The position numbers were made by a program, and so were the translations under genes. 64,000 bases of DNA, taken from assembly GCF_014400405.1 (NCBI RefSeq), contig NZ_CP060496.1, positions 3,348,001 through 3,412,000 of the forward strand. Reading direction: 5' to 3'. This DNA comes from Brachybacterium sp. Z12. Lineage in GTDB: Bacteria > Actinomycetota > Actinomycetes > Actinomycetales > Dermabacteraceae. How positions within the stretch are numbered: position 1 is the first letter of the stretch; every line of letters begins with the position of its first letter. Positions 61,914-64,000 of this stretch are shown one piece after another. The notes under the pieces were generated by a model. The model ran no database searches. It was not told the origin of the DNA and saw only the letters and a list, made by a program, of their open reading frames with translations.

Positions 61914-62603
61914 TCACCAGCGGTTCAGGACGTCCTCGGCGAAGCCCTCGATGCCGTCGACGCTGACCCGCTCACCCTGGTCTCCGAGCTTCTCGATCTG
62001 CAGCTGGAGCCCGGGGGCACGGCCGGAGGCGTTCCCGGACCCGAGGGAGCCGGGCAGGCTCGCACCGATCCCGAACGGGACGATGGCCAGCTTCTGGAGC
62101 ACCTCTCCGCTCTCCCGGTCCAGCAGCCACACCGAGTGCAGCGCGATGTAGTCGACGTGGGAGACAGTCACCGCGAGGATGTGCCGCTGGGTGATGACGT
62201 TCCAGTACTCCCAGCGCTTGTTGCGGCCCCAACGCCGACGGCCTCCCTGGCGTGCACCGATCCCGGAGGTGTTGTGAAGGGACTGCCGCACGTTTAGGTG
62301 ACAGTTAGGGTCGTAGACGCTGCCTCCGAGACTGAGCGCCACTCCCTTGATGGTGAGCTCGTCCGCGATGTCCCTCGCGTCCGGGAGCGAGCGGGCCAGC
62401 CGGTCGAGCTTGGTCACCACCAGGGTGTCGCCGTCCTGGGTCGCGGCCAGCGCTTCGCGCAGCCCGGGCCGGGCGCGGGTCGTTCCGGTCAGGCCGTGGT
62501 CGGAGTAGATGTTCTTGTTCTCGACTCCGAGGCGCTCGAGTGCTTCCCGTTGGGCGGAGAGGTCTTGCTCGAGAGTCGAGACGCGCGCGTAGCCGACATG
62601 CAT
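61914..62603 (-). pseudogene. Chimera: serine resolvase N-terminal domain fused to truncated DUF2804
   Basis: One continuous 229-codon frame. Residues 1-101 are a serine resolvase/invertase catalytic domain (HVGYARVSTLEQDLSAQREA with nucleophile Ser9; TKLDRLARS with the two arginines; KGVALSLGGSVYDP), cut just where the rest of the catalytic helix and the DNA-binding domain should follow. From about residue 113 on it is a DUF2804 fragment (TSGIGARQGG, RWGRNKRWEYWNVITQRHIL, VDYIALHSVWLLDRESGEV). The missing DUF2804 N terminus is at 63911-64000, across a 1.64-kb insert. Both parent genes are incomplete, and the DUF2804 part also ends early. Confidence 0.75.
62266..62272. repeat. 7-bp direct repeat, left junction of insert
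   Basis: GAGGTGT at the left junction is repeated at 63904-63910. In DUF2804 coding direction both copies encode the same -ACACCTC- stretch (Thr-Ser), as expected of a target duplication or recombination core. Confidence 0.6.
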
Positions 62604-62767
62604 GTCCCCAGAGTTGCAGTTGCCCTCCACTCACCGCCGATGTCACCGTACGGGTCTTGCGTACATGACGATCCCTCATAAAAAGTCGTCGAGGAGGAAG
62701 CTCGCACGACGTACGGTGGAGGATCCCCTTACGGGCATGCGATCTGGGCTGACGCCTGTGACCGAGT

Positions 62768-62801
62768 GTTCAGTGCGCGCTGTATAGTTCAGTGCATGCT
62801 G
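62768..62801 (+). promoter_or_regulatory. Leaderless cmtR promoter with 15-bp direct-repeat operator
   Basis: TATAGT at 62783-62788 ends 7 bases before ATG 62796. GTTCAGTGCGCGCTG (62768-62782) and GTTCAGTGCATGCTG (62787-62801) differ at two bases, lie 19 bp apart, and flank the -10 box, a plausible binding site for CmtR itself. Confidence 0.6.
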
Positions 62802-63155
62802 ACTATTGCTTCGCGTCTCGACGTGATGAACCGCCTGGGTCGTGCACTGGCCGACCCCACTCGATCCCGGATCATCTTGACCCTGCTCGACCATCCCGCT
62901 TACCCGGCGGAACTGGCCCGAGATCTGGACCTGACACGCCCGAACGTGTCCAACCACCTGGCATGCCTGCGCGATTGCGGGATCGTCGTCTCCGAGCCCG
63001 AGGGTCGTCGGACACGATATGAGATCGCCGATTCTCACCTGGCGCAGGCGCTGACGGCACTGGTCGATGCCACCCTGGCAGTGGACGAAGACGCCCCGTG
63101 CATCGATCCCGCCTGCTCGCTTCCCGGATGCGACGCAGCTGGGGAGGGCGCATGA
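62796..63155 (+). CDS. cmtR: CmtR-type ArsR-family Cd/Pb-sensing repressor
   Basis: A metal-responsive repressor of 119 residues. LGRALADPTRSRIILTLLDH, LDLTRPNVSNHLACLRDCGI (recognition helix followed by the metal site) and EGRRTRYEIADSHLAQAL align with Mycobacterium tuberculosis CmtR. Cys57, Cys61 and Cys102 fall at exactly the residue numbers of the CmtR cadmium/lead ligands. Extra cysteines (PACSLPGC) follow at the C terminus. Metal binding should release DNA and induce the coupled cadD gene (ATGA overlap at 63152). Confidence 0.9.
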   Translation: MLTIASRLDVMNRLGRALADPTRSRIILTLLDHPAYPAELARDLDLTRPNVSNHLACLRDCGIVVSEPEGRRTRYEIADSHLAQALTALVDATLAVDEDAPCIDPACSLPGCDAAGEGA

Positions 63156-63753
63156 TCCTCACCTCGGTCTTGCAGGCGATGGGCCTGTTCGCAGCGACCA
63201 ACATCGACGACATCATCGTGCTCTCCCTCTTCTTCGCGCGAGGGGCAGGCCAGCGCGGCACTACCGCCCGCATTCTGGTCGGCCAGTACCTCGGATTCGC
63301 CGGCATCCTAGGTGCCGCGGTCCTGGTGACCATCGGCGCCGGAGCATTCCTGCCCTCGGCAGCCATCCCGTACTTCGGTCTCATCCCTCTGGGCCTCGGC
63401 CTCTGGGCCGCATGGCAGGCCTGGCGCGGAGACGATGACGACGATGACGACGAGGCCAAGGTTGCCGGCAAGAAGGTCGGCGTGTGGACAGTCGCAGGCG
63501 TCACCCTTGCCAACGGCGGCGACAACATCGGCGTCTACACCCCTGTCTTCCTCAGCGTGGAACCTCTCGCAGTAGTCGCCTACTGCATCGTCTTCCTCGC
63601 GCTCGTCGCGGTCCTGGTAGCCCTGGCAAAGTTCGTCGCCACCCGCCCCCGATCGCCGAAGTGCTCGAACGCTGGGAGCACATCCTCTTCCCCATTGTTC
63701 TCATCGGCCTCGGCATCGTGATCCTCGTCAGCGGTGGAGCCTTCGGACTCTGA
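63152..63753 (+). CDS. cadD: CadD-family cadmium resistance transporter (frameshifted)
   Basis: A membrane protein giving cadmium (and probably lead or zinc) resistance, about 200 residues after repair. TNIDDIIVLSLFFARG (the conserved Asn-x-Asp-Asp of the family in helix 1), LVGQYLGFAGILGAAVLVT, an Asp-rich cytoplasmic loop (DDDDDDDEAK), GVTLANGGDNIGVYTPVF and a last helix (ILFPIVLIGLGIVILVSGG). One C is lost from a C5 run near 63648, where ATRP should continue PIAEVLERWEH. Its start overlaps the cmtR stop. Confidence 0.88.
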
Positions 63754-63903
63754 CGTAGCGGCAGCGATCCAAACGGCCCCGACTGGACGCACCCCTCTCG
63801 GTTCAGACCGCGACACCTACCTGCAGCCAGTCCTGCGTGATCGCGGCAACAAGACCGCCACGGAGCGCTGCAAAAACCCTGCCACCAAGCGAACGAAGCC
63901 ACA

Positions 63904-63910
63904 GAGGTGT
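63904..63910. repeat. 7-bp direct repeat, right junction of insert
   Basis: GAGGTGT, the second copy of the repeat at 62266-62272. The 150 bases between cadD and this point hold no gene that I can support. Confidence 0.6.
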
Positions 63911-64000
63911 CGTGCATCTGGGTGCGGGTGAAACCGAGGGCGCCGGGTTCAGGCCGCCGTCAGGGCCGGTCAGCGGCGTCGGGGTGGTGATCTCGCGCTC
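63911..64000 (-). pseudogene. N-terminal part of DUF2804 gene (start outside window)
   Basis: Read leftward from the window end: REITTPTPLTGPDGGLNPA, then after a one-base break LGFTRTQMHDTS, the usual opening of DUF2804 proteins (acidic/Pro start, DGxLNPAAxGxTR). The next residues (SGIGARQGG, then GRNKRWEYW) are found across the insert at 62272 and leftward. The gene was therefore split by the insert. Function of DUF2804 is unknown. Confidence 0.7.

What the first reader, a model, noticed from the sequence alone, without database searches (positions are those of the whole stretch)
61914..64000. A cmtR-cadD resistance segment split a DUF2804 gene and created an in-frame resolvase-DUF2804 chimera
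The leftward frame at 61914-62603 starts as a serine resolvase catalytic domain and, after about 101 residues, runs without a stop into the middle of a DUF2804 protein. The DUF2804 N terminus sits at the window's right edge, and the junctions share GAGGTGT. Joining 63911 to 62272 gives a continuous TQMHDTSGIGARQGG. The resolvase lacks its DNA-binding domain, so the element appears stranded. If the chimera is expressed from the resolvase promoter it is a new protein.
Basis: partly seen in the sequence, partly recalled or inferred. Interest (0 to 1): 0.75.

Follow-up and report, generated by a model that had tools for sequence, protein, structure and literature searches.

The report
Transposon and IS scars fuse two fragments
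A small cadmium-resistance transposon landed in an unstudied gene of a Brachybacterium chromosome, a second mobile element and two deletions then eroded both, and by chance what is left reads as one open frame; this is ordinary gene decay, recorded unusually clearly.

Summary
The 229-codon leftward frame (61914-62603) joins about the first 100 residues of a serine resolvase to part of a DUF2804 protein. The same frame, 98% identical, is in Brachybacterium massiliense mt5, so it is not an assembly chimera. (1) A Tn552/TniA-type transposon derivative (1,934 bp when intact: inverted repeats, resolvase, cmtR, cadD, no transposase) inserted in DUF2804; GAGGTGT is its 7-bp target duplication. (2) An IS3-type element common in the genus inserted six bases inside its left end. 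(3) A deletion at an 8-bp repeat (GTTGGGGT) removed most of the IS, the left repeat and the resolvase C-terminus, leaving a 26-bp IS tip. The frame reads resolvase, IS tip, transposon tip, target duplication, DUF2804 fragment. Such a frame is expected: a third of sampled starts stay open as far. The fusion is in 2 of 47 family genomes, with 5 amino-acid-changing against 1 silent codon difference. Most likely a dead composite pseudogene; event order and lack of function are inferred. Interest is low.

The parts
61914..62265 (-). DUF2804 remnant: profile positions 37-120 of 339 plus the natural last ~22 residues, joined in frame by an internal deletion near 61,980-61,990 that removed about 190 residues
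   Evidence: Pfam; alignment with Microbacterium DUF2804, middle piece = L025 residues 62-150, tail = 343-364
62266..62272 (.). GAGGTGT, left copy of the 7-bp target-site duplication
   Evidence: Sequence; direct repeats of 7, 9 and 10 bp flank three of seven other copies with both ends located
62273..62278 (+). TGTGAA, remaining tip of the transposon's left inverted repeat (TGTGGA in L004, L005, L107, L109)
62279..62304 (+). 26-bp tip of an IS3-type insertion sequence
   Evidence: Pattern in 27 of 38 Brachybacterium genomes (window's own included, where this scar is the only match), reversed control 0 of 38; paired inverted tips 1.25-1.27 kb apart at 5 of 20 fetched Brachybacterium loci; IS3-type transposase genes between them in L084
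62304..62311 (+). GTTAGGGT, deletion junction: GTTGGGGT in both an IS end (L076) and the intact resolvase gene (8-bp microhomology)
62304..62603 (-). truncated serine resolvase gene, catalytic-domain residues 1 to about 100
   Evidence: Pfam Resolvase; the element as a whole is 97-98% identical to copies with a full-length resolvase
62796..63155 (+). cmtR-like ArsR/SmtB metalloregulator
   Evidence: HTH_5; annotated homologue
63152..63753 (+). cadD cadmium-resistance transporter, frame-shifted in this assembly (intact copies exist in mt5 and in plasmids)
   Evidence: intact plasmid homologue is Pfam Cad
63854..63903 (-). right terminal inverted repeat of the transposon, tip at 63903
   Evidence: In 4 of 4 plasmid records with this end the best match stops at 63903/63904; inverted match to left repeats, 71-76% over 49-52 bp
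63904..63910 (.). GAGGTGT, right copy of the target-site duplication
63904..64000 (-). 5' part of DUF2804 (continues to about 64,009, outside the window)

Best explanation
A composite pseudogene made by successive mobile-element events. A nonautonomous Tn552/TniA-type cadmium-resistance transposon inserted in a DUF2804 gene with a 7-bp target duplication. An IS3-type element then inserted six bases inside its left inverted repeat. A microhomology deletion (GTTGGGGT) fused the IS tip to the middle of the resolvase gene. Separately, DUF2804 lost about 190 internal residues. The surviving stop-free frame through resolvase, IS tip, transposon tip, duplication and DUF2804 remnant is accidental and probably has no function. 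Shown: the pieces, their identities and the open frame in two genomes. Inferred: the order of events, the deletion mechanism and the lack of function.
For: The right end at 63903 is the stop of the best match in 4 of 4 plasmid records, and at 12 places in 11 of 38 Brachybacterium genomes (window and mt5 included) the match runs to position 1599-1600 of the 1600-base query. Three copies of 1,934 bp (L004, L005, L109) have inverted TGTG..CACA repeats and a full resolvase frame, and direct repeats of 9, 7 and 10 bp. A relative in Rhodococcus ruber pYYL1.1 carries AAA ATPase, Mu-type transposase, resolvase, cmtR and cadD between similar repeats. The 26-bp scar matches the tip of an IS pattern found in 27 of 38 genomes, control 0 of 38, and an IS with such tips sits inside the same element in G039. 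DUF2804 pieces abut, and the internal deletion is seen. Two of three frames after the junction are open for over 100 codons, and 2907 of 8715 minus-strand starts sampled every 7 bases stay open for 129 or more.
Against: No genome with an empty or earlier-stage site was found: of 38 Brachybacterium genomes only the two fused copies pass the DUF2804 cut-off. Of 7 other copies with both ends located, 4 (L006, L007, L104, L107) show no direct repeat. Repeat length varies (7-10 bp), more than I recall for Tn552. Only 6 bases of the left repeat remain and one differs. The deletion microhomology is imperfect in the window (GTTAGGGT), needing a later change. The window's own genome holds no complete copy of the IS under the pattern used. 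A 3-bp IS duplication was seen at only 2 of 6 IS copies looked at. Expression was not tested.
Confidence: 0.87

Rival explanations
1. The fused frame is a domesticated new protein, transcribed from the resolvase promoter, with a role such as dominant-negative interference with resolvases or a leftover DUF2804 activity.
For: Same stop-free frame in two genomes that differ by 9% in the left flank; the N-terminal catalytic-domain stretch is recognisable.
Against: 5 amino-acid-changing against 1 silent codon difference, 2 of them in the window's resolvase part away from the residues of L004 and L108; about 190 DUF2804 residues gone; fusion in 2 of 47 family genomes; openness expected by chance; no sigma-70-like promoter found at 62560-62900, a weak test in this genus.
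Confidence: 0.04
2. The truncated element, already carrying the IS tip as a substitute left end, transposed as a unit into DUF2804.
For: The 7-bp duplication directly flanks the present ends, and the left end begins TGTG.
Against: Only TGTGAA of a ~50-bp repeat remains at the left. The scar is not found a second time in the own genome. Of the 10 other right-end-bearing copies in the genus, the tip list has a tip at the element only in G039, where a whole IS lies at another point. The truncated copy in G040 has a different boundary.
Confidence: 0.06
3. Assembly or sequencing artefact at 62.27 kb.
For: The window genome has completeness 85.7% for a single 3.5-Mb contig and several single-base homopolymer differences from mt5, so the assembly may have indel problems.
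Against: Both junctions have the same structure in mt5, a different strain with its own record.
Confidence: 0.01

Closest known systems
Tn552 / Tn5053-Tn402 (TniA) group transposons
   Same: A relative in R. ruber pYYL1.1 has AAA ATPase, Mu-C transposase, serine resolvase, resistance passenger and TGTG-ended repeats; that this gene set defines the group is recalled
   Different: Window copy and its 1.93-kb relatives lack the transposase and ATPase genes; target duplications seen here vary from 7 to 10 bp
IS3-family insertion sequences
   Same: Two-ORF transposase (HTH_Tnp_1, rve), ~1.25 kb, inverted tips, 3-bp duplication at two copies; family features recalled
   Different: Only 26 bp of one tip remain in the window
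DUF2804 (PF10974) proteins
   Same: About 50% identity to Microbacterium members over the retained part
   Different: Split by the transposon and missing about 190 internal residues
CmtR-CadD cadmium resistance operons
   Same: ArsR/SmtB regulator followed by a Cad transporter, present on many actinobacterial plasmids
   Different: The window copy of cadD is frame-shifted in this assembly

Membership tests
Tn552/TniA-type transposon (nonautonomous derivative) | Terminal inverted repeats with TGT..ACA tips | tested here: met
   Right repeat intact; left reduced to TGTGAA; both present in the 1,934-bp copies
Tn552/TniA-type transposon (nonautonomous derivative) | Target duplication at insertion | tested here: met
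   GAGGTGT in the window; 7-10 bp at three of seven other copies with both ends located, none visible at four
Tn552/TniA-type transposon (nonautonomous derivative) | TniA (DDE, Mu-C) and TniB (AAA) genes within the element | tested here: not met
   Absent from the window element; present in the relative L104. So it is described only as a derivative, not as a member
Tn552/TniA-type transposon (nonautonomous derivative) | Mobilisation in trans by a TniA transposase | not testable with these tools
   Needs a transposition assay
IS3 family (scar) | Tip sequence shared with complete elements encoding IS3-type OrfA/OrfB | tested here: met
   transposase genes were checked in one copy (L084)
IS3 family (scar) | 3-bp target duplication | tested here: inconclusive
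   Read by eye: L078 (CAT) and L107 (TGG) yes; L068, L070, L073, L084 no; the second side is deleted in the window
Functional serine resolvase | Catalytic domain plus long helix and C-terminal HTH | tested here: not met
   No HTH match and profile ends at 96 of 145; the full-length relative has HTH_7
Functional DUF2804 protein | Full 339-position domain | tested here: not met
   Positions 37-120 only, plus the last ~22 residues by alignment

The most novel reading that the evidence does not exclude
The resolvase-IS-TIR-DUF2804 frame is translated and kept as a young fusion protein, shared between Brachybacterium lineages by recombination of a highly similar block (97-99% identity against 91% in the left flank).
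Probability: 0.03. Interest if true: 0.5.

Novelty: new member of a known kind. Interest (0 to 1): 0.22.

Why it matters
It is a clean worked example of how nested transposon and IS insertions followed by microhomology deletion create long stop-free frames in GC-rich genomes, and a warning that such frames can be annotated as multidomain proteins. It also documents a transposase-less cadmium-resistance transposon found in several Brachybacterium genomes and on actinobacterial plasmids.

Tried and rejected
Serine-recombinase crossover origin of the repeat: rejected, because intact copies have inverted repeats and, where a direct repeat is seen, a different one at each site. Assembly chimera: rejected by mt5. 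Left end as the element's own repeat: the 26 bases after TGTGAA do not match it but match an IS tip. Structure prediction of the chimera: mean pLDDT 45.5 on a shallow alignment of 14 sequences without full-length resolvases; uninformative, not used. Promoter scan: 0 found, not decisive. Literature: Tn552 with cadmium and cadD (20 of 30 listed), Brachybacterium with cadmium and transposon (1 paper), Tn552/TniA with target duplication terms (10 of 11 listed), Tn552 with Rhodococcus and cadmium resistance (none), DUF2804 (1 paper), chimeric genes by transposons (15 of 98 listed), IS3/microhomology fusions (8 of 32 listed). I saw listings only; no listed title or abstract start describes this element. 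Of PMC5896051 I saw the abstract and section list and did not use it. Features of Tn552 and IS3 as families, and the name CmtR, are recalled.

Dropped before counts: one silent codon difference between window and mt5 upstream of the resolvase ATG is left out of the 5-to-1 count.

Full report
Setting. The window is part of a single-contig 3.51-Mb genome with an estimated completeness of 85.7%. The closest named match is Brachybacterium massiliense mt5, which is in the same genus (G045), so the window is from a Brachybacterium.

The observation. The leftward frame 61914-62603 is there and hits both Pfam Resolvase (residues 4-91, E 2.6e-25) and DUF2804 (residues 124-206, profile 37-120 of 339, E 1.7e-19). 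GAGGTGT occurs at 62266-62272 and 63904-63910. The same frame with no stop, 98% identical over 229 residues, is in mt5, so the join is not an assembly error. In a search of 47 genomes of the family, the window's own included, it is in 2.

What was inserted. The stretch 62304-63903 matches plasmids of Microbacterium and Cutibacterium at 97-98%. In 4 of 4 plasmid records with the right end, the best match stops at 63903/63904, the last base before GAGGTGT or its first base. Three intact copies (L004, L005, L109) are 1,934 bp: a left inverted repeat beginning TGTGGA, a serine resolvase (190 residues in L004), an ArsR/SmtB regulator (cmtR-like), cadD, and a right repeat ending CACA; the repeats match each other at 71-76% over about 50 bp. 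Direct repeats flank these three: CCGTCGA in L005, ACGTCGACG in L004, AGATTGACCC in L109. Four other copies with both ends located (L006, L007, L104, L107) show none; L006 and L007 have different left halves. In 38 Brachybacterium genomes the query matches to its last base or one short of it at 12 places in 11 genomes, window and mt5 included. In Rhodococcus ruber pYYL1.1 similar repeats bound a 4.1-kb unit with an AAA ATPase, a Mu-type transposase, a resolvase, cmtR and cadD. The window element is therefore best read as a transposase-less derivative of a Tn552/TniA-type transposon. That attribution rests on this gene set and on recalled knowledge; transposition in trans was not tested.

How the left end was lost. 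In the window the left duplication is followed by TGTGAA, then GGGACTGCCGCACGTTTAGGTGACAG, then the resolvase fragment. The 26 bases do not belong to the transposon. They are the tip of an insertion sequence: the pattern GGGACTGCNGCACGNNNNGGTGACA (one mismatch allowed) is in 27 of 38 genomes, and its reversed control in 0 of 38. The window's own genome is one of the 27, but its only match is this scar, so no complete copy remains there under this pattern. Of 20 fetched Brachybacterium loci (two of them the window's and mt5's scar) five hold both tips in inverted orientation 1.25-1.27 kb apart and one a pair 0.5 kb apart; the others show one tip. In one copy (L084) the DNA between encodes IS3-type OrfA (HTH_Tnp_1) and OrfB (rve). 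In G039 an IS with such tips sits inside another copy of the same cadmium element, with a TGG duplication. In several complete IS copies and in L076 the tip continues GTTGGGGTGTCAGG, and the intact resolvase gene reads GTTGGGGTCGTAG; the window reads GTTAGGGTCGTAG. The simplest history is IS insertion six bases inside the left repeat, then deletion between the two GTTGGGGT copies. It explains the scar, the missing repeat and the missing resolvase C-terminus together. The order is inferred; no intermediate was found.

DUF2804. The 5' piece (read from mt5, where its frame is intact) and the next piece, kept apart, abut on intact Microbacterium DUF2804: residues 14-62 and 62-150 of L025. The tail then matches 343-364. 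Of 38 genomes in the genus only these two copies pass the family cut-off; G046 has one weak match below it. G006, a fragmented assembly, shows a 24-residue DUF2804 tail beside the same neighbour gene, which suggests a separate loss.

Is the fusion a protein? After the junction, the three frames stay open for 129, 2 and 109 codons. Of starts sampled every 7 bases in this window, 2907 of 8715 on the minus strand and 2742 of 8715 on the plus strand stay open for at least 129 codons. The frame is unremarkable. Between window and mt5 the 229 codons show 5 amino-acid-changing and 1 silent difference; these are too few for a formal test, but they do not suggest constraint. From DUF2804 rightward the compared blocks are 97-99% identical apart from the short scar (95% over 39 bases), and the left flank is 91%, so the two copies may share this block by recombination rather than by long descent. 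A structure prediction was too poor to use. A promoter scan found nothing, which is weak evidence in this genus. The most probable state is a pseudogene.

Frameshifts. Against mt5 the window assembly shows several single-base differences in homopolymers, which break cadD, the DUF2804 5' piece and a neighbouring isochorismatase-like gene; in mt5 the frames through cadD and through that neighbour are open. With the low completeness, these are probably sequencing errors, but real mutations are not excluded. Intact cadD copies exist in mt5 and in plasmids.

Noticed in passing
window 61,000 to about 66,270 (L008 against L023): Several single-base homopolymer differences break genes in the window assembly whose frames are open in mt5; together with 85.7% completeness this suggests indel errors elsewhere in the assembly too.
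   Followed up: partly
window about 61,908: Identity with B. massiliense steps from 91% on the left to 97-99% in the blocks to the right, a likely recombination boundary at the end of DUF2804.
   Followed up: partly
L097 2811-4091 (G012): A related resolvase (Resolvase E 1e-41) runs in frame into a transposase-like stretch (HTH_23; rve 22.1 bits, below its cut-off), a second resolvase fusion in the genus.
   Followed up: partly
L108 1859 to about 2148 (G040): Another Brachybacterium copy of the element has lost the resolvase C-terminus at a slightly different point; its frame stops about 24 codons later.
   Followed up: partly
L011 about 241-312 (G006): Only a 24-residue DUF2804 tail is seen beside the isochorismatase-like gene, perhaps a separate loss of the same gene.
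   Followed up: partly
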